From: Ruminococcus flavefaciens
GTDB taxonomy: Bacteria; Bacillota; Clostridia; Oscillospirales; Ruminococcaceae
Direction: 5' to 3'
Length of the DNA: 34,771 nt
Assembly: GCA_902760805.1 (NCBI GenBank)
Contig: CACWHY010000022.1
Span: 1 to 34,771 of the forward strand
This document shows positions 6,121 through 29,553 of the stretch, piece by piece. The notes beneath the pieces were generated by a model, which did not search any database, was not told the DNA's origin, and saw only the letters and a program-made list of their open reading frames with translations. The stretch's first letter is position 1. Every line of letters starts with the position of its first letter. The position numbers and the translations under genes were made by a program.

Positions 6121-7440
6121 TCATATCTTCATTTTCAGCACACTTCTTGCATAGGCCAGGCTTTGGCGGAGGACATTTTCCTTCTCCAGCCCAGCAAGGC
6201 GGAGCTTGTGAGCGTACTCCAGGATCTGAGCCATCTCCTCTCCCGGCGAGATCCCGGCTTCGATCAGATCCTTTCCGGAAACGAATGGCCGCTCCATTAT
6301 CCGGCAGAATTTCTCATAGCGCTCCATTAGGAACTGCTCTGAGCTGTCGTTTTGAGGCAGCTTCCCCAGACCGTCGCAGATACTGAGCTGGATCAGATCG
6401 AAGGGCTCCACCGAGAGATCGAACATCCGGTTTGTGCGCTTCAGCTTTGAACGTGACTTTGCCAGCTTGTTGGGATCCATGTGGAGCTGGGTCATGTTCA
6501 GAACGTACCGTTTCAGCCTTTTATCGGAGGTCAGCCTCGCCAGGAAGCTCCTCACCAGCGGCAGGCCCTCTGTCTCGTGGCCGTAGGAGTGTACCACGCC
6601 GTTTTCCTCAGTGGTAGCGACAGCCTTGCCGAAGTCGTGGCAGAGAGCGCTCATCATGAGCCCCAGAGGAAAATGGGCGGTATCTCGGCGTTTTGCGGCC
6701 TCATCCACCACCATCATGGTGTGTACCCACACATCGCCCTCCTGGTGATAATACCTGTTTTGGGGAACTCCGATCAGCGCCTCCAGCTCAGGCATCCAGC
6801 AGCTGAGCTGCTCCATTTTGCGGAGCTCCTCAAAGAAGACCGAAGGCCGCTCAGATCGAAGGAGAGCCTTTGAGATCTCTCCCATGACACGCTCCCCTGC
6901 AAGCTGAGAAACGTCTATTTTTCGGCAAAGATCAAGAGTTTCCTCTTCTACTGAGAAGCCATAGCGTGCTGCCAGCTGAGCTGTGCGGAAGGCCCTCAGA
7001 GGGTCACTTGCGAAGGTATCGTCGTCCACCCGGCGCAGCAGCTTTCTCTCAATGTCCTCCCTGCCGCCGAAGTGGTCGGTGAGCTGGCCGGTGAGGACGT
7101 TCTCCATGATCGAATTTAAGCTCAGATCACGGCGTCTGGCTGCCTCAAATGTGCCGATATTGGGGGCTTCACAGCCATTATCGTCCCGAGGGAGCGAGAT
7201 GTCGAGCCCACGCCCGGCCAGCCCGTATACACCGAAGCTCCGGCCATGCTCAAGGACAGTCCCCACCTCCCCCAGCAGCTCTCTGAGCTTCTCACCGGGG
7301 ACCCCGTGGATCTCTATGTCGATGTCCTTGCACGGGCAGCCAAGGAGCTTGTCTCGGACGCAGCCGCCTACGAAATAGGCACGGCCGCCCTGAGCCTCCA
7401 CCAGCTGAGCAATTTGTTTTGCGGTTTCAAGGTCGGTCAT
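6121..7440 (-). CDS. cca: CCA-adding tRNA nucleotidyltransferase with HD domain
   Basis: A 439-residue class II CCA-adding enzyme, which builds or repairs the 3' CCA end of tRNAs from CTP and ATP. The head domain has VGGCVRDKLLG (residues 24-34), the catalytic Asp pair in KDIDIEI (D39, D41) and LDISLPR with a third Asp. RRDLSLNSI and DPLRAFRTAQLAARYGF form the neck and nucleotide-selection region. The C-terminal half contains an HD phosphohydrolase domain (VHTMMVVDEA, LCHDFGKA, YGHETEG), as in Escherichia coli-type enzymes, which process 2',3'-cyclic phosphate ends. The start at 7440 has GGAGG 8 bp upstream. The gene overlaps the WYL gene by 14 bp, so it is translationally coupled, and the operon lies opposite the Ro-like gene. 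The HD domain suits repair of broken tRNA. Confidence 0.95.
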   Translation of the reverse strand: MTDLETAKQIAQLVEAQGGRAYFVGGCVRDKLLGCPCKDIDIEIHGVPGEKLRELLGEVGTVLEHGRSFGVYGLAGRGLDISLPRDDNGCEAPNIGTFEAARRRDLSLNSIMENVLTGQLTDHFGGREDIERKLLRRVDDDTFASDPLRAFRTAQLAARYGFSVEEETLDLCRKIDVSQLAGERVMGEISKALLRSERPSVFFEELRKMEQLSCWMPELEALIGVPQNRYYHQEGDVWVHTMMVVDEAAKRRDTAHFPLGLMMSALCHDFGKAVATTEENGVVHSYGHETEGLPLVRSFLARLTSDKRLKRYVLNMTQLHMDPNKLAKSRSKLKRTNRMFDLSVEPFDLIQLSICDGLGKLPQNDSSEQFLMERYEKFCRIMERPFVSGKDLIEAGISPGEEMAQILEYAHKLRLAGLEKENVLRQSLAYARSVLKMKI

Positions 7441-8437
7441 TTTTCCAGCCTCCATCGAATTTTTCCAGCAGCTCCACCTGCCTGCGCACACGGTCTCTGG
7501 CCTGTAATCTTAGCCGCTCAGGACCCATGATCTCAATGACCGGACCGAAGCTGAGCAGCTTGATCAACAGCTCGATCTCGTCATGAACGTCGTACCACAG
7601 CTCAACAGTGTGCTCCCCTGTTTCCGGGTCACGGACAGAGTGCTTCTCGAATGAGGCGAACTCCAGCATGAAGCGCTCCACCGCATTGCGCTCGGGAGTT
7701 ACCCTGATGACCGCCGGCGAGCTGCACTTTCTGCTGGAAAAATAGCTGTCCATGGAGATCTCCTCCGTGAAGACCTGACCTGTATCACGAACGCTGCGGA
7801 TCCGGCCGATGTTGATCATGCCGCTGTCGGAGATCTTGCCGCCCTTCAGCTGATAGCAGTACACCCGAAACCGGTCGTTCCGTGGAGAATACTCCATTTT
7901 CAGCATGACGAAGCTGCCGAAGATCCGGTTTTTCTTTCCTGAAACGAAGCCGATCTCCAGGATACTTCTGTCCTTGACCGCCCTGAGGATCTTGCGGAAA
8001 TTGGCTATATACTCAGGGTCGGAGTAGGGATCGTGCTCAGTGGGACGGTCGGTGGTGCGGAACTGCTCCTGCCGGTAGAGGGGCACTGTTCCGGAAAGCC
8101 GCCTTTCAAGCTCAGCCAGGGCGTCCTCCTCCATGAAGAGCCTGATCCTTGGGTCGGAGAGCTTTGCCTTCAGCCAGCTTTTTTGCAGGCCTGTGAGGAT
8201 CCTGGGCGGAGCATTTTTCGTGACTCTCCTCAGACTGCCGTCCTTTTCTCTGCGGAAAAGCCCCCAATCCTCGCTGCCGGGGATCAGCTTTTGGGGCAGG
8301 AAGAGGATCGAGTCCCGGAAGCCGCCTCGGAAGATCGCCTCCCGGACGGTCTTATCGTCAGTTGTGCCAAGGGTCAGGAGCTTGGCTGCGATCCGGAAAT
8401 ATGCTCCGTAAAGCTCACTGAATATGTTCATCTTCAT
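7427..8437 (-). CDS. WYL-domain regulator (second of a PafBC-like pair)
   Basis: A 336-residue protein with a C-terminal WYL-type domain. The N-terminal half has a winged-helix-like segment (VREAIFRGGF, VTKNAPPRILTGLQKSWL). A beta-rich ligand-sensing region follows (ILEIGFVSGKKNR, FRVYCYQLKG, GMINIGRIRSV), then a WYL C-terminal extension (VTPERNAVERFMLEF, EIELLIKLLSFGPVIEIMGPE). WYL proteins are known as transcription factors or effectors that sense nucleic acids or nucleotides. It overlaps the upstream WYL gene by 23 bp and the downstream cca by 14 bp; an upstream GTG at 8440 is the alternative start. Being coupled to both, it probably works with the first WYL protein as a heterodimer, in the manner of PafB and PafC. 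The target promoter may be the divergent Ro-like gene. Confidence 0.8.
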   Translation of the reverse strand: MKMNIFSELYGAYFRIAAKLLTLGTTDDKTVREAIFRGGFRDSILFLPQKLIPGSEDWGLFRREKDGSLRRVTKNAPPRILTGLQKSWLKAKLSDPRIRLFMEEDALAELERRLSGTVPLYRQEQFRTTDRPTEHDPYSDPEYIANFRKILRAVKDRSILEIGFVSGKKNRIFGSFVMLKMEYSPRNDRFRVYCYQLKGGKISDSGMINIGRIRSVRDTGQVFTEEISMDSYFSSRKCSSPAVIRVTPERNAVERFMLEFASFEKHSVRDPETGEHTVELWYDVHDEIELLIKLLSFGPVIEIMGPERLRLQARDRVRRQVELLEKFDGGWKNDRP

Positions 8438-9683
8438 CACCGCCGTACATTTTATCCATTCGGTAAATATCGCTGTAAAACCGCTGTCTTACGCTGCTTG
8501 GGCCGCCTTCCACACGCTTTATCCTGCCGATGAATGTCTTGACCCAGTGCATGATCTCGTTGACGTCAAGCACGTCTGCGGTGAGGGTGAAGATATGGTC
8601 GCCGGTGCGCTCAAGAGTGCAGCAGCGCTTCTCCCGCTGAAGCCGCTCAATGACGTAGTATTCACGGATCGGGTCTGCGAAAAACTCTATCCTCATGGGT
8701 GACCTTCCGGCGCTCTCTGAGGAAAAGCCGAAGGACACTCCGAAGCACCGGGCTGCGGCCTTGCGGAAGCTCTCATCCAGCCGTTTGTGATCCTCACAGA
8801 CCTGCCCCACCTTGACGCTCCTGATGTTGTCCAGCCGCATAGCCACAAATCGCCTGAGATCCGGGGCATAGCCTGCCGCATAGCGCCTTCCGGTCTGGGC
8901 TGAGGAGAAGATCTGCATGGGCAAAAGGGGCATCTCCCTTTCGGTCTTTTCGGAGCTGTTTTGCCCGGGAAATACTGCTGCTGTTATGTATCGGTGCTCA
9001 TCTATCGCCCTGAGAAGATCCGGCAGCAGCAGATCCTCCAGTGTGTGCATCAGGTAGTTGTGCTTGATGAAGAAAAGGTCGTTTTTCAGATCCAGAGACT
9101 TCATTATGCTGTTGCCCACAACACCGAAGGACTGCACCTCTGAGAAGAATTTCACGGCGTCCTCAAGGCCGGGGACCGCAGAAAGGTACTCGTCCGCTCG
9201 GTCCTTTGTCAGAGAGTAGACCAGTGACTTCCCCGATCTTTCCGCAAGGACGATCCCCTCATCGGTGTATTCACGGAGCTTGTTGCGCACAGTCTGCTCC
9301 TCGAAAATGAAGCCGTATTCGCTCTCCAGAAGATCCACGATCCTCCGCAGGGGCAGCCTCTCCTCCTGAGAGAGAATGTCCAGAAGCAGAAAGTGAAGGC
9401 GGATGTCGTTGTCGGTGAAGCTCCTGGAATAAAAGGCGCTGTACAGAGGATTTTCGGGGATATGACCGCTGTCCACGGAGATCGACACCTGCCTTCCACG
9501 AACTGAGTCGTCATAGCGCATATAGTCCCCGATCCAGCTCTCCGCCCGGCGCTTCTCGTCGTCGTAGGTGCGGGAGCTCTTCCTATTGAAATCGCTCCTG
9601 ATCTTGCTTCCGTATATGAAAAAATCCCGAAGGTAATCTCTTGTTTTGTCGAAGTTTTTTATCAGCTCAGAAAAGCCAGCCAT
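8415..9683 (-). CDS. WYL-domain regulator with N-terminal helix-turn-helix (first of pair)
   Basis: A 422-residue protein. The first part (SELIKNFDKTRDYLRDFFIYG) is followed by a long region ending in a winged helix (LLDILSQEERLPLRRIVDLL, EQTVRNKLREYTDEGI, SGKSLVYSLT). The second half carries a WYL-like core (HRYITAAVF, LPMQIFSSAQTGRRY, LRRFVAMRLDNIRSV) and a WYL C-terminal domain (MRIEFFADPIREYYVIERL). The start at 9683 has AAGGA 9 bp upstream; earlier ATG codons lie almost at the transcription start. It leads the operon WYL-WYL-cca and is divergent from the Ro-like gene, with both promoters inside about 100 bp. By analogy with PafBC and similar pairs it should be a DNA-binding regulator responding to a nucleic acid signal; this is inference. 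Confidence 0.82.
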   Translation of the reverse strand: MAGFSELIKNFDKTRDYLRDFFIYGSKIRSDFNRKSSRTYDDEKRRAESWIGDYMRYDDSVRGRQVSISVDSGHIPENPLYSAFYSRSFTDNDIRLHFLLLDILSQEERLPLRRIVDLLESEYGFIFEEQTVRNKLREYTDEGIVLAERSGKSLVYSLTKDRADEYLSAVPGLEDAVKFFSEVQSFGVVGNSIMKSLDLKNDLFFIKHNYLMHTLEDLLLPDLLRAIDEHRYITAAVFPGQNSSEKTEREMPLLPMQIFSSAQTGRRYAAGYAPDLRRFVAMRLDNIRSVKVGQVCEDHKRLDESFRKAAARCFGVSFGFSSESAGRSPMRIEFFADPIREYYVIERLQREKRCCTLERTGDHIFTLTADVLDVNEIMHWVKTFIGRIKRVEGGPSSVRQRFYSDIYRMDKMYGGDEDEHIQ

Positions 9684-9707
9684 TTCTCCACTTCCTTCCA
9701 TACATCT

Positions 9708-9737
9708 AATATAACACAAAACCGGGCGGCATTTCAA
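9708..9737 (-). promoter_or_regulatory. Promoter of the WYL-WYL-cca operon
   Basis: On the minus strand TTGAAA (9737-9732) is followed after 18 bp by TATATT (9713-9708), or after 17 bp by TTATAT. The -10 box is only 25 bp from the first start codon, giving a short leader. Confidence 0.65.
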
Positions 9738-9769: not shown

Positions 9770-9797
9770 TGAACTTCCTTCCGGATCATGCTATACT
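9770..9797 (+). promoter_or_regulatory. Probable promoter of the Ro-like gene and its structured leader
   Basis: TATACT at 9792-9797 is a good -10 box, but the -35 region (TGAACT at 9770-9775) is poor, as expected for a promoter needing an activator. It lies 33 bp from the -35 box of the divergent WYL operon, so a WYL regulator could act on both. Transcription would begin at about 9804. Confidence 0.5.
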
Positions 9798-9814
9798 AAG
9801 TTTACTCCCATGAA

Positions 9815-9980
9815 GGGCAAGCGCCCCACCGGTCAAAGACGCATACAGCAATAGTTCTGGAGATATTGCGTCTTGTTAAACGACTCATACAGCAATAGCT
9901 CTTGGATATGAGAATGAGCCGTGTCAAAGTCAGCATCAGCATACACACGATCCAGCGGAGGCCTCTCCGCTGTCTGACTT
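9815..9980 (+). ncRNA. Structured leader RNA with repeated stem-loops before the Ro60-like gene (Y RNA candidate)
   Basis: This non-coding stretch holds three stems. P1 pairs AAGACGCA (9836-9843) with TGCGTCTT (9867-9874). P2 pairs GACTCAT (9882-9888) with ATGAGCC (9914-9920; one mismatch), or CTCATA with TATGAG. P3 pairs AAGTCAG (9927-9933) with CTGACTT (9974-9980) and encloses a perfect 8-bp hairpin with a 4-nt loop (9953-9972). The loop sides of P1 and P2 share CATACAGCAATAG (9842-9854, 9886-9898), then a TCT(T)GGA-type segment and ATAT. CATACA recurs at 9940-9945 in P3. A small GGGC/GCCC hairpin lies at 9815-9826. P3 ends 1-4 bp before the ribosome binding site (AAAGGAG), so it could also control translation. 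Ro proteins bind Y RNAs often encoded beside them; these repeats are my candidate, without a match to a known Y RNA family. Confidence 0.55.
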
Positions 9981-9994
9981 GAAAGGAGCAGAAT

Positions 9995-11464
9995 ATGCTT
10001 GAAATGTTAAAAAATGAACTCAGCTATACATACACCCAGAACGGTGCGATCGCTCTAAATTCCACCGGCGGGAACTGCATGGACCTTTTCTTCAGCGCAG
10101 GCGCAATGCGTGGCGCTTCCAAGGAGGAGATCTCTGCACTTACGATCCACGCCTTTGCAGAGGACCCTGACAAGACCATGAAGATACTCTTCTTCGCCCG
10201 TGACGTGAGAGGCGGCCTTGGCGAGCGCAGGTTTTTCCGCATAGCTATGGGAGCTCTGGCAGGCTATGCACCTGAGTCTGTCAGGAAAAACATCAAGAAT
10301 TTCGCAGAATACGGCCGTTTTGATGACCTGATGGTGCTGCTGGGGACTCCTCTGGAAAATGAGGCCGTTTCTCAGATCAAGGCTCAATTCTCCGCCGATA
10401 TGAAGGCTATGGCGGACGGAAAGAGAGTTTCCCTGCTGGCAAAGTGGATGCCCTCGGTGAATGCCTCCAGCTCCGCCACAAGGATCCGTGGCAAGCGCCT
10501 TGCAGCCCTCATGGGCATGAGAGAGCCTGCCTACAGAAAGGCGCTCTCCGCCCTGCGAAAGTACACCGACATTCTGGAAAACCGCCTCCGTGAGCGTGAC
10601 TACACCTTCGATTACGAGGTGCAGCCTTCCCGTGCCATGTTCAAGTACAGAAACGCTTTCTACCGTAACGACGGTCTCCGCTACAGCCAGTATCTGGACA
10701 AGGTAGAGGTGGGCAGAGCTGTCATGAACACCGGCACCCTCTACCCCTATGATATAGTCCGCAGAGCCCTTACCTACGGTATTTCCGCAGAGGAGATCCG
10801 TTCTCTTGACGTGGCGTGGAAGGCTCTGCCTGACCTTACCGGATCCCGGAAGGAGAATGCGATCGCAGTGATTGACGGCTCCGGATCAATGACGATCGGC
10901 TGCGGGAGCCTTCGCCCTCTGGACGCTGCGCTGTCCCTGGGGATGTACTTCGCAGAGCACAACGTAGGCGCCTTCGCAAACCACTTCATCACCTTCTCTG
11001 AAACACCTCAGCTGGTTGAGATCAAAGGCGGCGACATCGTGGAAAAAGCTCAATACTGCGCCAGCTACAACGAGATCGCCAACACCGATCTGGAGCAGGT
11101 CTTCCTGCTGATCCTCAGGACTGCGCTGAACAACAGAGTTCCCCAGAAGGAGCTCCCCACAAGGCTGTACATCATCTCCGATATGGAGTTCGATGAGGCA
11201 GTCACCGGCGGAAACAGCAAGCCCTTGTTCCGTGAGATGAAGGAGCTGTTCGCACAGCACGGCTACAAGCTGCCTGAGATCGTTTTCTGGAACGTTTCCG
11301 CCAGAATGGGAGCGATCCCCGTAGGGCGCTCAGAAACAGGTGCTGCTCTTGTTTCCGGCTATACACCGGCAGTTTTCGACATGGTGATGAGTGGAGAGCT
11401 CTCCCCTGAGACAGTGATGGAGCAGGTCCTCTCCTCCCCCAGATACGCAAAGATCTCCGCATAA
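9995..11464 (+). CDS. Ro60-like TROVE/DUF2828 protein with vWA domain
   Basis: A 489-residue protein of the TROVE/DUF2828 type, the bacterial relatives of the Ro60 autoantigen. Residues about 1-280 form a HEAT-like helical ring: NCMDLFFSAGAMRGAS, AEDPDKTMKILFFARDVRGG, GRFDDLMVLLGTPLENE, SLLAKWMPSVNASS. This region binds RNA in Ro proteins. Residues about 285-480 form a von Willebrand A domain with an intact MIDAS site (VIDGSGSMT, D294/S296/S298; later ISDMEFDEA). There is no signal peptide or membrane segment, so it is cytoplasmic. The start at 9995 has AAAGGAG 7 bp upstream. It is divergent from the WYL-WYL-cca operon and has a structured leader. In Deinococcus the Ro protein Rsr works with Y RNA and PNPase in RNA decay; a similar role is inferred. 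A terminator follows. Confidence 0.88.
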   Translation: MLEMLKNELSYTYTQNGAIALNSTGGNCMDLFFSAGAMRGASKEEISALTIHAFAEDPDKTMKILFFARDVRGGLGERRFFRIAMGALAGYAPESVRKNIKNFAEYGRFDDLMVLLGTPLENEAVSQIKAQFSADMKAMADGKRVSLLAKWMPSVNASSSATRIRGKRLAALMGMREPAYRKALSALRKYTDILENRLRERDYTFDYEVQPSRAMFKYRNAFYRNDGLRYSQYLDKVEVGRAVMNTGTLYPYDIVRRALTYGISAEEIRSLDVAWKALPDLTGSRKENAIAVIDGSGSMTIGCGSLRPLDAALSLGMYFAEHNVGAFANHFITFSETPQLVEIKGGDIVEKAQYCASYNEIANTDLEQVFLLILRTALNNRVPQKELPTRLYIISDMEFDEAVTGGNSKPLFREMKELFAQHGYKLPEIVFWNVSARMGAIPVGRSETGAALVSGYTPAVFDMVMSGELSPETVMEQVLSSPRYAKISA

Positions 11465-12235: not shown

Positions 12236-14986
12236 ATGAGTTCAAAGCTATTAAGGAAAGCGGTCTCATTGGCCGCAGCCGGAGCATTGCTCCTGTCAGC
12301 TGCTCCTCTTCTGCCTTCATCGGGCCTGAGAGCTGATGCAGCCGCTAACAAAGCCCGTGTTTCTGTTCATGACCCCTCTATCATCAAGGACGGCAGCACC
12401 TACTACGTTTTCGGCTCCCACATCGATGCAGCCAAGACCAACGACCTCCAGAACTGGACACTGTTTTCCAACGGCTACGCAAGAACGAATAATGTGGAGT
12501 TCGGAAACCTCTCACAAAACCTGCAAAAGGCCTTCGCCTGGTCAGGTGAGGACTTAGAGGACTGCGCCGGCGGATTTGCAGTCTGGGCGCCGGACGTTAT
12601 CTGGAACCCGGATTTCCAGAACTCTGACGGAACTAAGGGTGCTTACGTTATGTACTTCTGCACCTCATCCACCTATATCCGCTCGGTCATCTGCTTCGCT
12701 ACATCGAAGAACATCCAGGGTCCTTATACCTTCGGTGATACGCTGATCTACTCCGGCTTCACCAAGAACGACCAGTATGTTACCAGCGCCACCAAGAACG
12801 TCAACAAGAAGTACACCTCCACCAACATCGACGAGCTCATCGCTTCCGGTGAGGTGACTATGAACAACAGCTGGTTCAACGGCAACAATTTCAACAACCA
12901 GCTCTTCCCCAACGCTATCGACCCCACTATCTACTATGGCACCGACGGCAAGATGTACATGACCTACGGCTCTTGGTCAGGCGGTATCTTCACCCTTGAG
13001 ATCGACCCGGCTACCGGAAAATGTATCCACCCAAAGACAGGAACTACCTCCGACGGACGCATGGTGGACAGCTACTTCGGTACAAAAATCGCCGGCGGCT
13101 ACGGAAAGTCAGGCGAGGGTCCTTTCATCGAGTACAACGCCGACACTGGCTACTACTACCTGTGGACAACTTACGGCGGACTTGCCTGGGACGGCGGCTA
13201 TAATATGCGTGTTTCCCGTTCAAAGAGCCCTCTGGGTCCCTTCACTGACCCGGCAGGAAGAAAGGCTGTCCTTGACCCAAGCACCAACCTTGACAGCGTT
13301 GGTCTGAAGGTAATGGGCAACTACAAGTTCAGCACCCTTGATTCAGCATATTTCGCTCCCGGCCACAACTCAGTCCTCAGGGACGACGACGGTCGCTGGT
13401 ACCTTTTCTACCACACCCGTTTCCAGAACAGCAATATGCACCAGGTAAGAGTCCACGAGATGTTCTTCAACGAGGACGGCTGGCCTGTGGCAACTCCCTT
13501 CGAGTTCGGCGGAGACCATATCTCAGAAGGCGGCTATGACGAGGCCGACATCGTGGGCGATTATGAGTACATCAACCACGGCAATGGCACTAACGCAGAC
13601 CTAATCAATTACCAGAACATCAAGCTCAACGCAGACCATACGATCTCCGGAGCAGTTTCAGGTAAGTGGGAGCAGGCTCCCGACAGTGCTGCTGCAACTA
13701 TCACTATCGGAAATCAGCGCTACAGCGGTTACTTCATCGCTGCTGAGAACGAAAAGGGCACTAAGGTAATGTCCTTCACAGCAGCCGGAAACAACAACCA
13801 GTGCATCTGGGGCGCTAAAAACAGCGGGTTCACAGGCAGCGAGAGAGCTTCCCTTGCGGACTACACAAACCCCGACGCTGACCTGGTAATGGCTCCCGAC
13901 ACTGTAGGTGAACAGAGCAAGTCCTTAAAGCTCAGCGGAACAAGCCTGCTCAGCGGTGCTACCTACTTCATCACAAATCAGAACAGCGGTCTCTCCCTGG
14001 ATCTGCCTGACGGCTCACTGGAGGCTGGTACCAATATCCAGCAGTGGGACTTCAACAAGTCCTGGGCTCAGCAGTGGAGACTTGTTGCTGTGGACGATAC
14101 CTACTTCCGCATCGTTTCTCTCGGCGACGAGAGCAAGTGCATCGCCGTTGCTGAAAACTCAGCAGCTGACGGCGTAAATGTGGAATTACAGGCCTACACC
14201 GGCGCTGACAATCAGCTGTTCAAGCTGGTGGAGAGCGGCAGCTACTACGGCATCGTTTCCAAGTGCTCCGGCGGAAAGAGCGCTCTGGACGTATTTGAGT
14301 GGTCTACCGAGAACGGCGGAAATATCGCACAGTATCCCTACCACGAGTACGCCTGCCAGCTTTGGAAGATCGAGCCGGTACGTCCCTCAGTGACCAGCGG
14401 CACCTACACCATAAAAAATCTCAACAGCGGTAGATATATCGCTGACAAGAACGGCAGTGCTGTTCAGAGCCAGTCTCAGATCTGGAACATCACAAAGCAG
14501 GACGACGGTACCTACACTATCCAGGCCGAAAACGGCAAGGCTCTCACAGTTGAGAACAACTCCGCTGAGGACGGTGCTGACATCGTGCTTGCGGACTTCA
14601 ACGGCGGCAGCTCACAGAAGTTCAGGCTCCAGTGCAGCAAGGACGGCACATATTCCCTGCTCACTGTGGCTTCAGACGGCGCAAGATGTGCAGACGTCTA
14701 CGAGATAAGCCTTGAAGACGGCGCAAACATCTGCCAGTGGGAATACTGGGGCGGCGACGGTCAGAAGTTCATCCTTGAGCCTGTGATCGCTCCCAAGGCT
14801 CCCGAGCAGGTGGTCGGCGACATCAACGCTGACGGAGAGTTCTCCGTAAACGACCTGGTAATGCTCCAGAGATACCTTCTCAGGGCTATCGACGAGCTGC
14901 CAAACTGGCAGGCCGGCGACCTTACCGGTGACGGAAAGCTGTCCACCTTCGACCTGATCCTCATGCGCCAGATGATAGTGCAGTGA
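12236..14986 (+). CDS. Secreted GH43 endo-arabinanase-type enzyme with two CBM13 modules and a dockerin
   Basis: A 916-residue secreted enzyme. Residues 1-35 are a signal peptide (KLLRKAV, then a hydrophobic core, cleavage near ALRADA). Residues about 42-430 form a five-bladed GH43 catalytic domain resembling Abn2-type endo-1,5-alpha-arabinanases. The likely catalytic residues are D46 (VHDPSII), D229 (NAIDPTIYY) and E294 (GEGPFIEY), with the metal-linked His in PGHNS (377). A GH43 C-terminal beta-sandwich follows (about 430-565). Two ricin-type CBM13 modules span about 572-715 and 721-850 (QxW motifs; NICQWEYWGGDGQKF). Residues 858-916 are a type I dockerin with two Ca loops (DINADGEFSVND, DLTGDGKLSTFD) for docking on a cellulosome scaffoldin. 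It is monocistronic, with its own promoter and terminator. Subfamily is inferred from motifs. Confidence 0.92.
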   Translation: MSSKLLRKAVSLAAAGALLLSAAPLLPSSGLRADAAANKARVSVHDPSIIKDGSTYYVFGSHIDAAKTNDLQNWTLFSNGYARTNNVEFGNLSQNLQKAFAWSGEDLEDCAGGFAVWAPDVIWNPDFQNSDGTKGAYVMYFCTSSTYIRSVICFATSKNIQGPYTFGDTLIYSGFTKNDQYVTSATKNVNKKYTSTNIDELIASGEVTMNNSWFNGNNFNNQLFPNAIDPTIYYGTDGKMYMTYGSWSGGIFTLEIDPATGKCIHPKTGTTSDGRMVDSYFGTKIAGGYGKSGEGPFIEYNADTGYYYLWTTYGGLAWDGGYNMRVSRSKSPLGPFTDPAGRKAVLDPSTNLDSVGLKVMGNYKFSTLDSAYFAPGHNSVLRDDDGRWYLFYHTRFQNSNMHQVRVHEMFFNEDGWPVATPFEFGGDHISEGGYDEADIVGDYEYINHGNGTNADLINYQNIKLNADHTISGAVSGKWEQAPDSAAATITIGNQRYSGYFIAAENEKGTKVMSFTAAGNNNQCIWGAKNSGFTGSERASLADYTNPDADLVMAPDTVGEQSKSLKLSGTSLLSGATYFITNQNSGLSLDLPDGSLEAGTNIQQWDFNKSWAQQWRLVAVDDTYFRIVSLGDESKCIAVAENSAADGVNVELQAYTGADNQLFKLVESGSYYGIVSKCSGGKSALDVFEWSTENGGNIAQYPYHEYACQLWKIEPVRPSVTSGTYTIKNLNSGRYIADKNGSAVQSQSQIWNITKQDDGTYTIQAENGKALTVENNSAEDGADIVLADFNGGSSQKFRLQCSKDGTYSLLTVASDGARCADVYEISLEDGANICQWEYWGGDGQKFILEPVIAPKAPEQVVGDINADGEFSVNDLVMLQRYLLRAIDELPNWQAGDLTGDGKLSTFDLILMRQMIVQ

Positions 14987-16560: not shown

Positions 16561-18114
16561 TCAGTTCAGCCCCATGAACCATGCCTGTGTCATTTCGACA
16601 CCAGCCTTGTCCAGCTTTTCAGAGCCGTTTAGGTAGTCCCAGACCTCCACGTCTGCTCGGGTAACGTCCTCGGGAAGCTCCAAAGTGAGCTCAGTCTCGC
16701 CGTTCTCGTCAAGGGTGAGCTTGCCCAGAGTGAGCTGGATCCATTTTCCGGTCTTGCCGGTGTCGGAGTCGGTGTAGTGAGGGTCCCAGTAGCCCCAGGC
16801 AGCATTCACCGCATATCCTGGCTGCGCCTTCAGCTTCACATGGAGAGTTCTTCCGCCAAGTCCGTCGGTAAGGCGCCATTTTCCGGCAGCCTCCTGAGTG
16901 AAGTTCACAAACACCTGCGCCGGGTCTGGCTGGCCGGACTCCAGCAGATCTCTCAGAGCGCACATATCGTAAATGTCCAGCCGGCCGTCTGAGCAGAGAT
17001 CTGTGTTTTCCCAAGAAAAATAGTGCTTTTCCGGCCTTGCAAGAAGCATATCCTGCAAAGTCTGGCCGTCGGTGAGATCCACGGATCCGTCCTCGTTAAC
17101 ATCGCCGCTGAGCAGGATCCTGCTCACGGACGCAACTTTATTGCCGCTTGTGGGAGAACACTCCGGCTGGCTGGTGTTCCTGAAAACGTATGAGGAGCAG
17201 TTCCAGCCCTTTACCAGAAACAGGTCGTCCCTGTCCATGTAGAAGGTGTTGTCATAGATCCGGCTGTTCTGTCCCCAGCCTTCCACAGCGTTGTACAGGT
17301 CCACCGCCTGAACGATCTTCTCGTTCTCGCTGCGATAGCCAACGTTATTGCGGAGGATCACGTCGTTGCCCTTTACCTCGATCAGGCTGTCGGCGCCGTT
17401 CTGTCCCTGAGTTCCGCAGCCGTCAAGGGTACAGCCCTCCACAAGAGTTCCCCGGGTGTACTCCTTTATGTCGATGCAGTCAGCGCCCACGTTAGAGATC
17501 CGGCAGTTCCTCACTGTATTGTAATGGCAGTCAAAGCCATAACCGGTGGTACCCTTGGCGCTGCCGATGTAGATGCCCTCGCCGTACTGTGGACTGACTG
17601 TTCCGCAGTCATGGACATAGCAGTTCTCGATAAGGCAGCCGCTGGTATCGTCACGGAGGTGGATCCCCTCGGCTCCGATGTCATAGACCTGACAGCCGGT
17701 TATGGTGGAATTGCTGGCCTGGTCAAGGACTATGCCCTTTCCGGCATTGCACACCACCAGGTTTTCCAGGTGCCAGAACTCTCCAATTATGTGGAGCCCC
17801 ACCTTGTTTTCCTGGGTAGCTCCGCAGATCATGGCCGGATCATCGGGATCCTGACTGCAAATAGTGATCGGCTGCTCAGCAGTTCCGCTGGCTTCTGAGA
17901 AAAACGCCGCCCATTTGCCCTTCCACTCGTCGTTCTGATATTTTCCTGGCGCAAGGATCAGCCTGTCTCCGGGTCTGGCTCCCTCCAGAGCAGCCAGCAG
18001 CTCCTCCGTGGTGGAGATCTCCACCTGACGGGCTCCGTCAACATCCACGTTCATGGAAAGGCCGCTGCACATCACCGCAGCTGCCGCAAAAATGCTAAGG
18101 ATAGTTTTTTTCAT
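16561..18114 (-). CDS. Secreted right-handed beta-helix protein (polysaccharide-lyase-like) with internal dockerin and C-terminal beta-sandwich
   Basis: A 517-residue protein. Residues 1-30 are a signal peptide (MKKTILSIFAAAAVM). Residues about 31-330 are a right-handed parallel beta-helix starting VEISTTEELLAALEGARPGD and RLILAPGKYQND, with many coils (ITGCQVYDIGAEGIHL, CLIENCYVHDCG, NTVRNCRISNVGADCIDI). This resembles PL6/PL9/NosD-type lyases. A dockerin (about 337-400; SGDVNEDGSVDLTD and CSDGRLDIYDMCAL) sits in the middle, not at the end. A C-terminal beta-sandwich (about 405-517, ending AWFMGLN) is probably carbohydrate-binding. The start at 18114 has AGGAGG 8 bp upstream; an upstream GTG is less likely. 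It leads the operon with FruK and the exonuclease. I cannot identify catalytic residues with certainty, so lyase activity is inferred; pectin or alginate-like uronates are possible substrates. Confidence 0.85.
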   Translation of the reverse strand: MKKTILSIFAAAAVMCSGLSMNVDVDGARQVEISTTEELLAALEGARPGDRLILAPGKYQNDEWKGKWAAFFSEASGTAEQPITICSQDPDDPAMICGATQENKVGLHIIGEFWHLENLVVCNAGKGIVLDQASNSTITGCQVYDIGAEGIHLRDDTSGCLIENCYVHDCGTVSPQYGEGIYIGSAKGTTGYGFDCHYNTVRNCRISNVGADCIDIKEYTRGTLVEGCTLDGCGTQGQNGADSLIEVKGNDVILRNNVGYRSENEKIVQAVDLYNAVEGWGQNSRIYDNTFYMDRDDLFLVKGWNCSSYVFRNTSQPECSPTSGNKVASVSRILLSGDVNEDGSVDLTDGQTLQDMLLARPEKHYFSWENTDLCSDGRLDIYDMCALRDLLESGQPDPAQVFVNFTQEAAGKWRLTDGLGGRTLHVKLKAQPGYAVNAAWGYWDPHYTDSDTGKTGKWIQLTLGKLTLDENGETELTLELPEDVTRADVEVWDYLNGSEKLDKAGVEMTQAWFMGLN

Positions 18115-18140
18115 TTTGACCACCTCCTAATGCCTCTTTA

Positions 18141-22715: not shown

Positions 22716-22744
22716 TTGACTTATCCGTGAATGCGTGCTATAAT
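22716..22744 (+). promoter_or_regulatory. Promoter of the LRR-dockerin gene
   Basis: TTGACT (22716-22721), 17-bp spacer and TATAAT (22739-22744). The start codon is about 180 bp downstream, so there is a long untranslated leader (22752-22927) that could be regulatory; no clear structure was found in it by eye. Confidence 0.7.
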
Positions 22745-22927
22745 TATTTTAAAGAATTCGTTGATATAGTCTTTCCTGATCGTATATTCAGGAGGCAAAT
22801 TCACTTCTCAGCTCTTGCAGCTTTAGCCCTGTGCTTTTATCTGCTGTCAGGGCAGACAAAAAAGAAGAGACAGATTATGTTCCGCTCGGCTATGATATCA
22901 CTGCACATAAGAAAAGGAGGTCTCATC

Positions 22928-24553
22928 ATGAAATGTAAACGGTTATTCAGTATTTTCTGTACGACAGCTCTTTCCGTCATGTCTCTCGGACAGAGTCTTA
23001 CGCCGGCTGCGCCTGTTTTTCCTGCTGCTGTCACAGCATACGCGGAGGAAACAGCCTCAAAGGTCACACTGAACGGCATGACATTCAGCATTTTCTCCAA
23101 TCATGCCGAAGTCACAGAATGTGTCCGTTCCTATGAGGGAGAACTTATCATTCCTGATGAGGTTAACGGTGTGCCGGTCACAAGTATCGGTTTCTCTTCT
23201 ATTGCCGGCTGCGAGAAGATCACCTCTGTTACAATCCCGGACACCGTGACAAGCATCAATGTCTACGCATTCAATGCGTGCAGTTCACTCGTCTCCGTGA
23301 CGATACCCGATTCCGTCACGTATATCGGAGACAACGCATTCGTCGGAACGAAGTGGCTGGAAGCGAAGCAGGAAGAAGACCCGTTTGTCGTGGTCAACGG
23401 TATCCTTATCGACGGAAAAACCTGCTACGGTGACATCGTAATTCCCGACAGCGTGACGATGATCGGTGACAGTGCATTCAGCGGCTGTCATGAGATCACA
23501 TCAGTCGTGATCCCGGATTCTGTCACAAAGATCGGCACAGATGCGTTCTCAAACTGTGCCTATCTCAGCTCTGTGTCGATACCTGATTCTGTCACGGAGA
23601 TTCCTGCCTGGGCATTCTATGGAACAGGTCTTACATCTGTCGTGATACCTGATTCTGTAACGAGCATAGACGACCGTGCTTTCTGCCTTTGCTATCAGCT
23701 CGAAACGATCACCATACCCGAATCCGTTGCATATATCGGCGATGAGACATTCGACAGCACATATTGGATGAGCGCACAGCAGACAGCAGATCCTCTTGTC
23801 ATTGTCAACGGTATCCTTATAAACGGAAAAACGTATGAAGGCGACCTTGTCATCCCAGATTCAGTCACAATGATCGCAGACGGTGCATTCTATGAGTGCG
23901 AAACGATTACCTCACTGACGATCCCGGACTCTGTCACACGGATCGGCCGCCATGCGTTTCAGGACTGTATAATGCTCGAAACAGTTGTGATGGCAGATTC
24001 CGTCACTGATATGGGCGAATATGCGTTCAACTGGTGCAGCAATCTTGAGTCAGTCACATTATCCGCTTCACTGAAAAGCATCGAAAAGGATACCTTCACA
24101 TTCTGTAACATTCTCCATGAGATTGACATCCCGGCTTCTGTTTCCAGCATCGGAGAAGATGCATTCCTTGGTTGCAGGATGCTGGAGACCATCACGATCA
24201 ACAATCCCGATTGCAATATATTCGATCAAAGCGATACGATCTGTACAGAATATGACAAGAATCTGAAACGAGACATATTTGACGGAGTAATCTGGGGCTA
24301 CGGCGGTTCCACTGCACAGGCTTATGCGCTGAAATACGACTACACATTTGAAGCAATCAGCAGTATTACAGGCGATGTGAGCGGTGACGGAGAATTCAAC
24401 ATCTCCGATGTTGTGCTTGTTCAGAAGTGGCTGCTTGGTGTTCCTGATACACAATTCACTGACTGGAAAGCTGCCGATTACTGCCCTGACAACAAGCTCA
24501 ATGTATTCGATCTCTGCCTGATGAAACAGGCTTTGGTCGATGGCCAAAAGTGA
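22928..24553 (+). CDS. Secreted BspA-type leucine-rich-repeat protein with dockerin
   Basis: A 541-residue extracellular protein. Residues 1-41 are a signal peptide (MKCKRLFSIFCTTALSVMS). Residues about 50-470 are LRR_5/BspA-like repeats with the pattern TIPDSVTxIGxxAFxxC, used for binding surfaces or proteins; no catalytic site is visible. The repeats interrupt twice with a VVNGILIDGKT / VNGILINGKT segment 137 codons apart, pointing to an internal duplication. Residues 480-541 are a type I dockerin (GDVSGDGEFNISD and CPDNKLNVFDLCL), in which one Ca loop is slightly degenerate (PDNKLN). The start at 22928 has AAAAGGAGG 8 bp upstream; the longer upstream frame lacks a signal peptide. Likely a non-enzymatic cellulosome component for adhesion or interaction, inferred from domain makeup. 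It is monocistronic with its own promoter and terminator. Confidence 0.9.
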   Translation: MKCKRLFSIFCTTALSVMSLGQSLTPAAPVFPAAVTAYAEETASKVTLNGMTFSIFSNHAEVTECVRSYEGELIIPDEVNGVPVTSIGFSSIAGCEKITSVTIPDTVTSINVYAFNACSSLVSVTIPDSVTYIGDNAFVGTKWLEAKQEEDPFVVVNGILIDGKTCYGDIVIPDSVTMIGDSAFSGCHEITSVVIPDSVTKIGTDAFSNCAYLSSVSIPDSVTEIPAWAFYGTGLTSVVIPDSVTSIDDRAFCLCYQLETITIPESVAYIGDETFDSTYWMSAQQTADPLVIVNGILINGKTYEGDLVIPDSVTMIADGAFYECETITSLTIPDSVTRIGRHAFQDCIMLETVVMADSVTDMGEYAFNWCSNLESVTLSASLKSIEKDTFTFCNILHEIDIPASVSSIGEDAFLGCRMLETITINNPDCNIFDQSDTICTEYDKNLKRDIFDGVIWGYGGSTAQAYALKYDYTFEAISSITGDVSGDGEFNISDVVLVQKWLLGVPDTQFTDWKAADYCPDNKLNVFDLCLMKQALVDGQK

Positions 24554-27234: not shown

Positions 27235-29553
27235 ATGCACAGAGTTAAGACAAGTAAAACCCTTTCAGTCATAGCTGCCCTTATGCTATCTGCATCAGCC
27301 TATACTATGAGTATGCCGTTAAACACAGCATTTTCCGCTGAAAATGCACCGGGCAATACATCAGACAGCATTATCCCGGACGGCTTATATTTCATCAGGA
27401 ATGTCAACAGCGACAAATACCTTTCTCAGCGATATGGCAATGTGATGCAGTTCAGTTCACCAAAAGCATGGAAAATCATAAATCAGCCTGACGGAAGTTG
27501 CTGTATCACATACTGTGATGACTATGCGCTGACAATAGAATGCGGTACAGGTACGGACGGTAATAACATCTCGCTTCAAAGAGCTGACGGCAGCGATGCA
27601 CAGAAATTCCTGCCCAGGCAGGTAGGTGATAATACCTATGCCTTCCTTACTGCCGTATCAGGAGGAGAGTCTGCTGTTGATGTATACAATATCAGCATGG
27701 ATGACGGTGCGAATATCTGCCAGTGGGATTACTGGGGAGGAGACGGACAGCACTTCATACTTGAAGCGGCATCTGAAACAGAGGATACTGCTGACGATGT
27801 ACGCCTGCCTGTGGAGTTGTCTGTAAGCCGGAACACCAATCCCTTTGCCGGAAATATCACAAAGAAGAATGAGCGTTACAATTACGGCGGAGACCCTGCT
27901 GCATTTGTAGACGGAGATACGGTCTATGCATATACCGGTCATGATATTTCTACAAATGCAGAGGTGGACAGAGCCATTTATAATATTCCCGAGTATCTTT
28001 GTTATTCCACAAAAGACCTCATCAACTGGAATTATGAGGGCGTAGTGATGAAAATGTCAGATGTTTCATGGGGAGACTCCAAAAGTGCGTGGGCAGGTCA
28101 GGTAACGAAGCATAATGGCAAATACTACCTTTACTTCTGCTCCTGGGACAGGACTTCCGAAGGTAAACAGTCAATAGGAGTCGCTGTATCCGATTCTCCC
28201 ACCGGTCACTTCAAAGACATCGGACATCCTCTTGTAAAAGGTACGCTCACCAATGACCAGTCCAGCAACTGGGATGACATAGACCCTACGGTATGGGTAG
28301 AACGGGACAAGAATGGAGTTGAGCACCGGTATCTTGCATGGGGCAACAGCAGATACTATATCTGTGAGCTCAATGATGATATGATAAGTGTTAAGGACCT
28401 GAACGGTGACGGAAAGATAACATTCGGAGGTGAAGGTCCGAACGGAGATGTTTTCTACCGCGGCAGAGGACTGAATATGTATACCGAAGCCCCCTGGATC
28501 TACAGGAGACAGAACGAAGACGGAAGCTATTACGGAGATTATTACCTAATCTACGCTTATCGCTGGCGTGAGCAAATGGCATATTCCACCTGTACCGATC
28601 TTCTGAAGGGGGACTGGAAGTTTGGCGGCCTTATGTTTGAAACTAATGCTACATCCAATACCAATCACAGCGGTCTGTTTGATTTCAAGGGCAAGACCTA
28701 TATAATCTATCACAACGGAGCACTCCCGGAAGGCAATGGATACAGAAGGTGTCCTAATATATGTGAAGTCAATTTCGACAGCAACGGCAGGATCATGAAG
28801 ATGGAAGAAACTACAGCCGGTATTGGCGGAACAGTGTCACAGATAACTGATACCAAAGGAAATATGATTGGTCACGCAGCATTTGTGAACTCCATAAACG
28901 ACAATGACTATCCGTATACAAACGTCCGGCTCGGCTCAAAGCTGAATGGTCTGACTGAGCACGATACGGATTGGGTAATCGTTCCCGGATTGTCCAATGT
29001 TGAAGAACCAACATATGTTTCCATTGAATCCGAAAACAAAACAGGATTATTTGTAACTATGGAGAGCAATGGCAGATCAGCAGTTCTCTCACAGATGACC
29101 ACAATTATTGACAGTGATCTGAAACGGGCAACATTCCGCACAATAGAAGGACTGGCAGACCCTACAAAGGTCAGCTTTGCAAGCGTATCAGATCCCGGAA
29201 AATATCTGACATCGACAGTGGATGGAAATATCATAATGACTGACGGCAGTAATCCTGCTGCGTGCACTTTCAGTATTTCACCCGATGGGATGATCCCGTC
29301 AGGGATGAAAGGCGACGTAAATGTAGACGGCAGCGTCACCCTCAACGATGCTGTGGCGATACTGCAATATATCGCGCTATCTGCGAAGTATCCCCTGGAT
29401 GCGATAGCCCTTGATGCAGCTGATGTCTGCGATCCCGGAACCAGCGGCATTAACGGCAACGATGCCCTTGCAATCATGATGGTGGACGCCGGTCTGCTTC
29501 AACCGGATAAGCTGCCTATAAGCGGCAGCGATCTGACGGAACACCTTTCTTAG
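27235..29553 (+). CDS. Secreted GH43 arabinofuranosidase/xylosidase-type enzyme with CBM13, CBM42-like module and dockerin
   Basis: A 772-residue secreted enzyme. Residues 1-35 are a signal peptide. Residues about 47-178 are a ricin-type CBM13 (NICQWDYWGGDGQHF). Residues about 198-535 are the GH43 catalytic domain with likely catalytic D220 (YGGDPAAFVDG), D350 (WDDIDPTVW) and E418 (MYTEAPWIYR). Inside it, residues 387-404 (KDLNGDGKITFGGEG) form a calcium-loop-like insertion. Residues about 556-684 resemble CBM42 (AbfB, arabinose-binding: ATFRTIEGLADPTKVSFASV). Residues 692-756 are a dockerin (GDVNVDGSVTLNDAVAIL; the second loop, DVCDPGTSGINGNDAL, is longer). The CBM42 hints at arabinoxylan or arabinan side chains as substrate. 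Start chosen by AGGAGG 8 bp upstream. A terminator follows. Confidence 0.92.
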   Translation: MHRVKTSKTLSVIAALMLSASAYTMSMPLNTAFSAENAPGNTSDSIIPDGLYFIRNVNSDKYLSQRYGNVMQFSSPKAWKIINQPDGSCCITYCDDYALTIECGTGTDGNNISLQRADGSDAQKFLPRQVGDNTYAFLTAVSGGESAVDVYNISMDDGANICQWDYWGGDGQHFILEAASETEDTADDVRLPVELSVSRNTNPFAGNITKKNERYNYGGDPAAFVDGDTVYAYTGHDISTNAEVDRAIYNIPEYLCYSTKDLINWNYEGVVMKMSDVSWGDSKSAWAGQVTKHNGKYYLYFCSWDRTSEGKQSIGVAVSDSPTGHFKDIGHPLVKGTLTNDQSSNWDDIDPTVWVERDKNGVEHRYLAWGNSRYYICELNDDMISVKDLNGDGKITFGGEGPNGDVFYRGRGLNMYTEAPWIYRRQNEDGSYYGDYYLIYAYRWREQMAYSTCTDLLKGDWKFGGLMFETNATSNTNHSGLFDFKGKTYIIYHNGALPEGNGYRRCPNICEVNFDSNGRIMKMEETTAGIGGTVSQITDTKGNMIGHAAFVNSINDNDYPYTNVRLGSKLNGLTEHDTDWVIVPGLSNVEEPTYVSIESENKTGLFVTMESNGRSAVLSQMTTIIDSDLKRATFRTIEGLADPTKVSFASVSDPGKYLTSTVDGNIIMTDGSNPAACTFSISPDGMIPSGMKGDVNVDGSVTLNDAVAILQYIALSAKYPLDAIALDAADVCDPGTSGINGNDALAIMMVDAGLLQPDKLPISGSDLTEHLS

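What the first reader, a model, noticed from the sequence alone, without database searches (positions are those of the whole stretch)
9770..11464. Ro60-like gene with a repeated stem-loop leader: candidate bacterial Y RNA or autoregulatory RNA
The TROVE/DUF2828-vWA gene is preceded by about 190 nt of non-coding leader with three closing stems: AAGACGCA/TGCGTCTT, GACTCAT/ATGAGCC and AAGTCAG/CTGACTT. Two of them share the 13-nt CATACAGCAATAG followed by similar bases, and CATACA returns in the third. Repeated loop motifs in tandem stems are unusual for a simple mRNA leader. Ro proteins bind Y RNAs frequently encoded next to them (established for Deinococcus and other bacteria). The RNA here does not resemble a Y RNA family I know, and DUF2828-type Ro relatives are poorly studied. 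Either the leader is processed into a Ro-bound RNA, or the protein binds its own mRNA.
Basis: partly seen in the sequence, partly recalled or inferred. Interest (0 to 1): 0.85.

Follow-up and report, generated by a model that had tools for sequence, protein, structure and literature searches.

The report
Ro-like protein with tRNA-mimic RNA arrays
The gene, a distant cousin of the human Ro60 RNA-binding protein, is preceded by a small tandem array of noncoding RNA hairpins, and relatives in gut bacteria and in many phages carry longer arrays, part of whose members copy pieces of transfer RNAs, which suggests a little-studied RNA-protein system for guarding or repairing tRNAs.

Summary
The leader at 9836-9981 holds three tandem units, each with a ~7-bp closing stem, ACAGCA (unit 3: TCAGCA) just inside it, a variable interior, and G after the stem. 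All 28 homologous Ruminococcus/Clostridia loci carry such units. The stem covaries strongly, also when units are picked from the 5' side alone (81 of 93 exact complements; control 0).

The neighbouring DUF2828 protein is predicted to have the Ro60 fold. Units and DUF2828 travel together. DUF2828 occurs in 43 of 50 unit-bearing phage records against 0 of 50 random ones. Units occur in 18 of 20 DUF2828 phages against 0 of 30 random records, and in no DUF2828-less genome among 391.

Phage units mostly sit among tRNA genes. Up to a third of interiors contain recognisable tRNA parts; the window's own units do not. In Ruminococcus the RNA ligase RtcB and WYL-type regulators are neighbours.

Best reading: a Y-RNA-like RNP whose RNAs present tRNA parts, as decoys or sensors for tRNA-cutting enzymes, beside RNA repair. 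RNA binding, expression and function are untested. Autoregulation alone is unlikely, because in phages units also lie downstream of the gene or far from it.

The parts
9836..9875 (+). RNA unit 1: closing stem AAGACGCA/TGCGTCTT, ACAGCA motif at 9845-9850, 3' G
   Evidence: sequence; pattern; model R1 36.3 bits (training row)
9880..9923 (+). RNA unit 2: stem ACGACTC/GAGCCGT with one A-C mismatch, ACAGCA at 9889-9894; resembles the CGGCTC class of homologues, interior much shorter
   Evidence: homologues; R1 E 0.0036 (not a training row)
9927..9981 (+). RNA unit 3: stem AAGTCAG/CTGACTT, variant motif TCAGCA, inner hairpin CAGCGGAG/CTCCGCTG; many homologues of this class hold a T-arm, this one does not
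   Evidence: fold z -3.0; not found by R1 at E 0.01; no 7-nt-loop hairpin
9995..11464 (+). DUF2828/DUF7788 gene, 489 aa, Ro60-like (helical ring plus vWA with MIDAS residues) by predicted fold
   Evidence: Pfam; phrog_850; MIDAS columns; structure
8415..9737 (-). divergent gene, putative WYL-type regulator (first of a conserved pair)
   Evidence: WYL weak here (E 0.08, below cut-off), 0.0023 in the L003 homologue, 1e-7 in L049; homologue in 23 of 28 loci
7427..8440 (-). second WYL/WCX-type gene of the pair
   Evidence: WCX; PADLOC WYL model E 2.5e-10; 23 of 28 loci
6121..7491 (-). CCA-adding/poly(A) polymerase-type nucleotidyltransferase next to the WYL pair; link to the system uncertain
   Evidence: homologue in 8 of 28 loci (in many loci its place would lie near or beyond the fetched end)

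Best explanation
The leader is a tandem array of Y-RNA-like noncoding RNAs that partner the adjacent Ro60-like DUF2828 protein. Shown here: the units are conserved, covarying stems with an almost invariant ACAGCA strand, and they co-occur with DUF2828 across bacteria and phages. A minority of interiors carry tRNA parts (anticodon-arm hairpins with real anticodon loops, T-arms, whole or circularly rearranged tRNAs). In phages the units mostly sit in tRNA clusters, and in Ruminococcus RtcB and WYL-type genes are neighbours. Inferred: the closing stem plus ACAGCA is what the Ro-like protein binds; the units are cut from a longer transcript; the interiors act as effector modules that mimic tRNA parts, so that tRNA-cutting nucleases, or repair and quality-control enzymes, are baited, sensed or steered. 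The window copy is a short version whose interiors show no recognisable tRNA parts.
For: Units upstream of the gene in all 28 homologous loci. R1 matches in 35 of 37 bacterial loci and regions (misses L049, L051), all 90 matches in the arrays and none elsewhere in 437 kb (many of these loci supplied training rows); 18 of 19 further loci of relatives, which may overlap the first set in species. 5'-side-only test: exact complement plus CTTG in 81 of 93 bacterial and 62 of 88 viral cases (fetch-pattern stems left out), 0 of 12 random viral, reversed control 0. All 7 stem pairs show double changes, 125 cells against 27.5 shuffled. Fold: the seven best PDB matches are all Ro60/TROVE. Co-occurrence. 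Anticodon loops identical to real ones: 13 of 81 units against 1.1 in shuffles, and 45 of 189 against 2.7. At least one tRNA gene in 82 of 118 viral unit loci against 8 of 80 random ones. RtcB in 19 of 28 loci, WYL pair in 23 of 28.
Against: 221 of 331 non-redundant units show no tRNA part by my rules, and none of the window's three does. 7 of 50 unit-bearing phage records have no DUF2828 match even with profile A2, and none of the 50 has TROVE. 36 of 118 viral unit loci hold no tRNA. RtcB is in only 2 of 25 unit-bearing phage records (0 of 25 random) and is not beside the array in the window (it lies on another contig). No Rfam Y RNA family was seen (the window, 10 of 28 bacterial and 16 of 118 viral loci scanned). 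No expression or binding data.
Confidence: 0.62

Rival explanations
1. Ro-like quality-control or tethering RNP: the units gate the Ro ring or tether it to an exonuclease such as PNPase, as reported for Deinococcus Rsr and Y RNA; tRNA-like interiors serve folding and stability, not nuclease baiting.
For: Same predicted protein fold; published model for Deinococcus (passages of PMC7790460 and PMC8058203); most interiors show no tRNA part.
Against: Does not explain why arrays hold several different units, nor why loops identical to real anticodon loops are about 12 to 17 times commoner than in shuffles.
Confidence: 0.25
2. Cis-acting mRNA leader: the stems regulate only the downstream DUF2828 mRNA by feedback binding or attenuation.
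For: In the bacterial DUF2828 loci examined the units lie upstream, on the same strand.
Against: In catalogued phages units lie downstream of the gene (5 of 18) or more than 2 kb from it (4 of 18; over 100 kb in Erwinia phage SNUABM_47 and Salmonella phage 7t3); a second array in the same genome lies on a contig where no DUF2828 gene was found.
Confidence: 0.07
3. Spacer or processing elements of tRNA operons, for example sites for tRNA-processing RNases, that sit near DUF2828 only because both belong to tRNA clusters of large phages.
For: Phage units are interspersed with tRNAs on the same strand; 82 of 118 viral unit loci hold a tRNA.
Against: In Ruminococcus the arrays adjoin RtcB or the WYL pair and DUF2828, and Rfam saw tRNAs in only one (L028) of 10 such loci; 391 DUF2828-less bacterial genomes have no match to the pattern or the model; random large phage records have neither units nor DUF2828.
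Confidence: 0.06

Closest known systems
Ro60/Rsr (TROVE-vWA) protein
   Same: Predicted fold: helical ring plus vWA; the seven best PDB matches of the model are Ro60/TROVE entries, TM about 0.46-0.63; MIDAS residues invariant in 47 sequences.
   Different: About 11-14% identity; Pfam DUF2828/DUF7788 and no TROVE match at E 0.001.
Bacterial Y RNAs, YrlA type
   Same: Encoded beside a Ro-like gene; terminal stem plus effector module; some effector modules are tRNA-like, and a few units have T-arm, closed acceptor and D-arm in rearranged order, which resembles YrlA as I recall it (titles of Chen 2014 and of Sim and Wolin 2018 seen only in reference lists).
   Different: No Rfam family seen for the units; tandem arrays of different units; mini anticodon-arm hairpins; partner is DUF2828, not TROVE.
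Salmonella rsr-yrlBA-rtcBA RNA repair operon
   Same: Ro-like gene, Y-like RNAs and RtcB together (passages of PMC7790460; here).
   Different: Regulators here are WYL-type, not RtcR; several RNAs per locus; in the window RtcB is on another contig.
Phage Ro-like RNA-binding proteins (e.g. Mycobacterium cluster L phages)
   Same: The same DUF2828 family: 672 of 50,697 phage records match the window protein; LeBron gp53 is annotated Ro-like and was toxic when overexpressed, as were an RNA ligase and a polynucleotide kinase (passages of PMC13148394).
   Different: I found no description of partner RNAs for them in the searches listed in the report.

Membership tests
Ro60 (TROVE-vWA) | helical ring plus vWA fold | tested here: met
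   AlphaFold2 model pLDDT 89.1, pTM 0.89; top Foldseek hits 1yvr, 9kop, 2i91
Ro60 (TROVE-vWA) | MIDAS residues in the vWA domain | tested here: met
   D294, S296, S298, T364, D396 invariant in 47 sequences (the MIDAS motif itself is recalled)
Ro60 (TROVE-vWA) | match to the TROVE profile PF05731 | tested here: not met
   Pfam scan of the window protein shows only DUF2828 and DUF7788 at E 0.001; so I call it Ro-like, not a TROVE member
Ro60 (TROVE-vWA) | binds Y RNA or misfolded RNA | not testable with these tools
   needs pull-down or binding assay
bacterial Y RNA | encoded next to a Ro-type gene | tested here: met
   28 of 28 bacterial loci; phages: within 2 kb in 14 of 18
bacterial Y RNA | terminal stem kept by compensatory changes | tested here: met
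bacterial Y RNA | tRNA-like effector module | tested here: inconclusive
   recognisable tRNA parts in 110 of 331 units, some of these by chance; in none of the window's three units
bacterial Y RNA | match to a known Y RNA covariance model | tested here: not met
   Rfam gave only tRNA, tmRNA, tRNA-Sec and ROOL among the matches shown (12 of 162 matches were not shown; I did not check by name which Y RNA models Rfam holds); descent from known Y RNAs is not claimed
bacterial Y RNA | bound by the Ro protein in the cell | not testable with these tools
   experiment
rsr-yrl-rtcBA repair operon | RtcB in the same locus | tested here: inconclusive
   19 of 28 homologous loci (one of the 19, L028, is a 30% identical gene downstream), absent beside the window array, present elsewhere in the genome
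rsr-yrl-rtcBA repair operon | RtcR regulator and RtcA | not tested
   a WYL-type pair stands there instead; RtcA and RtcR were not searched

The most novel reading that the evidence does not exclude
DUF2828 proteins are the centre of a widespread phage and bacterial system, a Ro-type particle loaded from an array of different small RNAs. Each RNA is a bait shaped like one part of one tRNA (an anticodon arm for Lys, Asn, Asp, Glu, Ser or Cys, a T-arm, a rearranged whole tRNA). It protects the tRNA pool against anticodon nucleases of defence and toxin systems, or reports their activity to the RtcB/WYL repair module.
Probability: 0.33. Interest if true: 0.95.

Novelty: new variant of a known kind. 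Interest (0 to 1): 0.86.

Why it matters
Ro60 and Y RNAs are known from animals and some bacteria, and the function of bacterial Y RNAs is largely open. Here a separate Ro-like family, present in about 1.3% of catalogued phage records (672 of 50,697), comes with its own covarying RNA class in arrays, and part of the RNAs copy tRNA anticodon arms. That turns 'Ro-like RNA-binding protein' in hundreds of phages into a testable RNP with candidate RNA partners, and links it to the tRNA-cutting and tRNA-repair conflict between phages and bacteria.

Tried and rejected
A single-sequence fold of the whole leader was not informative. Rfam gave no family for the units, also at lax thresholds on two arrays (one weak hit, P14, E 3.7). 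One class (CGGCTC stem, interior around GGGGCGCAGAGAGCTTTCCTACGGGTCAAAGCGCTGCG) could not be matched to any known RNA. TROVE as the phage partner was rejected (0 of 50). RtcB as a general phage partner was not supported (2 of 25). The promoter scan found none on the + strand before the array. An extended -10-like TGCTATACT at 9789-9797 is seen by eye only. Blastn of one phage array against INPHARED found nothing. The ARMADA lead that I recalled belongs to YprA helicase systems and looks unrelated (listing and start of abstract only). I considered a CRISPR-like repeat array and dropped it, because the shared part is a base-paired frame around unlike interiors.

Rows dropped: units with more than 80% simple identity were removed before counts, and units with other than NAG or NCG at the 5' end. 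Stems were required to pair when units were collected, so the counts lean towards pairing; one search was made to avoid that. Four of the 20 phage records had given training rows to R1 (FelixO1, LP-125, SEP9, EFDG1); 14 of the other 16 match. In one search only 13 candidates per genome were scored, and 3 of the 7 DUF2828 genomes were missed. The 755 real anticodon loops come from ARAGORN calls in the fetched loci, a few of which may be units themselves.

Full report
Observation. One search shows three stems in the leader of the DUF2828 gene: 9836-9875, 9880-9923 (one A-C mismatch) and 9927-9981. ACAGCA stands inside the stem in the first two; unit 3 has TCAGCA in the same place. All three are followed by G. 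A matching pattern occurs once in the window against 0.09 expected. The gene is Pfam DUF2828/DUF7788 and PHROG 850 'RNA-binding protein'. The window belongs to a Ruminococcus-like genome: the closest loci are Ruminococcus, and 18 of the 35 other same-genus genomes searched hold a relative of the protein.

Relatives in bacteria. A protein scan of genome contigs gave 28 loci that encode a relative. Upstream of each there are one or more units of the same build: a 6-11 bp stem, mostly from a few families (TAAGGCAC, TAAGACGC, TTCGGCTC, TAAGTCAG, TTCGTCAC), ACAGCA within 0-2 nt, an interior of about 16 to 90 nt, the complementary arm, then G. A strict count gives 1 to 6 units per locus, median 3. 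It accepts 93 of 143 ACAGCA within 1300 nt upstream on the gene strand, against 18 of 352 elsewhere in the same loci. Six more distant loci of the same phylum, from genomes found by the family alone, show the same build: five of them match R1; the sixth, L049, has variant motifs and is seen by eye only. A seventh, a divergent paralogue (L051), shows none. The same genome as the window has a second, four-unit array near the end of contig C39, where no DUF2828 gene was found.

Covariation. To avoid choosing units by their pairing, I took every AAGNNNNNNACAGCA and asked whether the exact complement of NNNN stands before a CTTG within about 110 nt. Yes in 81 of 93 bacterial cases, in 62 of 88 viral cases (stems used for fetching left out) and in 0 of 12 random viral cases; the reversed but not complemented control gave 0 in each. 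On an alignment of 81 units all 7 pairs have double changes, 99.3% of cells pair, and shifted registers give 28-53%; this alignment was collected with pairing required.

Phages. Two patterns with 21 fixed bases hit 72 and 53 stretches of IMG/VR; the first stem with a scrambled motif hit 2. In those contigs units often stand between tRNA genes on the same strand, for instance among 25, 24, 22 and 21 tRNAs in L084, L110, L112 and L079. Of the 118 fetched stretches 82 hold at least one tRNA, against 8 of 80 random ones. Of the 50 longest records, 43 carry DUF2828 and none TROVE. Of 50 records fetched with an arbitrary 15-mer, 0 carry DUF2828; these are shorter on average, 15 of them 62 kb or longer, while all 50 unit-bearing ones are. 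The 7 unit-bearing records without DUF2828 also miss with the 47-row profile. Within the fetched stretches 54 of 118 viral unit loci hold a DUF2828 reading frame, against 0 of 80 random ones. In the phage catalogue 672 of 50,697 records match the window protein. I took 20 of them, chosen by hand for variety of host (19 named phages and one faecal scaffold; 10 had been looked at by script before), and searched the whole records with model R1: 18 match at E 0.01, 0 of 30 random records do. The misses are Synechococcus B23 and Vibrio EniLVp02; in B23 variant units with TCAGCA or ACTGCA are visible by eye. The matches include FelixO1, Listeria LP-125, Mycobacterium Moostard, Staphylococcus SEP9 and Bacillus PJN02. 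The nearest unit lies within 2 kb upstream of the gene in 9 of the 18, downstream in 5, and further away in 4.

Bacterial specificity. In 398 genomes of the phylum, 7 carry DUF2828, the window's own included. A degenerate unit pattern hits 2 of 398 and model R1 hits 4 of 398. All hits lie in DUF2828 genomes, none in the other 391.

Protein. The AlphaFold2 model from 47 sequences has pLDDT 89.1 and pTM 0.89. Foldseek against the PDB returns Ro60/TROVE entries as the seven best matches (1yvr E 1.5e-8; TM 0.46-0.63), then mostly vWA domains. A sequence search of the PDB found no relative (best E 0.69). The MIDAS residues are invariant. I therefore call it Ro-like by fold, not a TROVE member.

Interiors. 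Hairpins with 7-nt loops in the interiors are enriched for the anticodon-loop pattern (strict form, stem of at least 5: 12 of 93 bacterial units against 0.14 in shuffles, 28 of 238 viral against 0.72). Loops identical to one of the anticodon loops of tRNAs found in the fetched loci occur in 13 of 81 bacterial units (1.1 in shuffles, largest 4) and 45 of 189 viral units (2.7, largest 8), for interiors up to 60 nt; CUUUUAA, the Lys UUU loop, is the commonest (17 in viral units). Other units contain a T-arm, a whole tRNA body, or T-arm, closed acceptor and D-arm in rearranged order. In a further form a normal tRNA frame has the unit stem in place of its anticodon arm. Simple rules find a tRNA part in 110 of 331 units: 34 of 93 bacterial and 76 of 238 viral. 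The anticodon rule there is loose (74 of the 110), and a similar loose rule gave 2.3 and 9.9 in shuffles, so some are chance. The other 221 show none, nor do the window's three units.

Neighbours. In the 28 loci a relative of RtcB stands in 19 (in L028 a 30% identical one downstream) and the WYL-type pair in 23 (Pfam). In the window the WYL-type pair lies beside the array and RtcB is on contig C13. Listeria LP-125 has an RtcB-like ligase 1.3 kb after the DUF2828 gene; Erwinia SNUABM_47 and Salmonella 7t3 phages have a gene annotated as RNA ligase shortly before it, with one and two small genes between. As a general rule RtcB is not linked in phages (2 of 25 against 0 of 25).

Mechanism. Published work places Ro-type protein, Y RNAs and RtcB together in Salmonella and suggests that the tRNA-like part of YrlA could inhibit an anticodon nuclease (passages of PMC7790460). 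A jumbo-phage survey describes ROT/TROVE proteins as platforms for RNA repair with a tRNA-like partner (passages of PMC7824862). The arrays here fit that idea and extend it: several RNAs per locus on one common frame, some presenting anticodon arms. Binding, processing and nuclease baiting are inferences.

Literature. Searches for DUF2828 (four papers, plant subjects by title), TROVE arrays, Y RNA with RtcB or WYL, YrlA, phage Y RNA, phage tRNA decoys, Ro-like phage proteins and tRNA clusters showed no description of these RNAs in their listings; I read passages only, of PMC7790460, PMC7824862, PMC8058203, PMC9569102, PMC11208441 and PMC13148394. Only open-licence PMC papers are held; Burroughs and Aravind 2016, Sim 2020 and Chen 2014 could not be read, so prior description there or in preprints cannot be excluded. 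The LeBron screen reports that overexpressed Ro-like gp53 is toxic.

Verdict. Most secure: covarying unit, Ro-like fold, co-occurrence. Less secure: tRNA-part mimicry as the common purpose. Open: function.

Noticed in passing
G000 contig C39, locus L055 (its first ~520 bases, minus strand): A second four-unit array in the same genome, near a contig end, followed by the start of another reading frame, on a contig where no DUF2828 gene was found.
   Followed up: partly
L144:11196-11346, L144:11817-11939, L059:4219-4336: tRNA genes that appear to carry a second tRNA-like sequence inside their anticodon region.
   Followed up: no
L045:3100-3340, L096:1842-2082, L144:6085-6214, L315: Capped form: a tRNA frame with the unit stem (3' arm, short loop, 5' arm, ACAGCA or a variant) in place of the anticodon arm. 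Two phage records annotate long odd tRNAs near the gene (Vibrio PhiImVa-1 tRNA-Sup-TTA of 115 nt, Synechococcus B23 tRNA-OTHER of 110 nt) that may be such forms.
   Followed up: partly
L003-L030 upstream arrays, e.g. L006:5818-5897; L114:3564-3662: Unit classes with longer structured interiors around GCUUUC...AAAGC that matched no Rfam family in the two arrays tested; what they imitate is unknown.
   Followed up: partly
L084:1-2134: A ROOL RNA and a tmRNA stand in the same phage tRNA and unit cluster.
   Followed up: no
L051 (G092 contig C17): A divergent DUF2828-like paralogue without a visible array, in a genome that also has the array type.
   Followed up: no
window 12236-14986, 16561-18123, 22727-24553, 27235-29553: Large proteins with signal-peptide-like starts and C-terminal dockerin-like repeats, typical of cellulosome-forming Ruminococcus (read, family recalled, not searched).
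   Followed up: no
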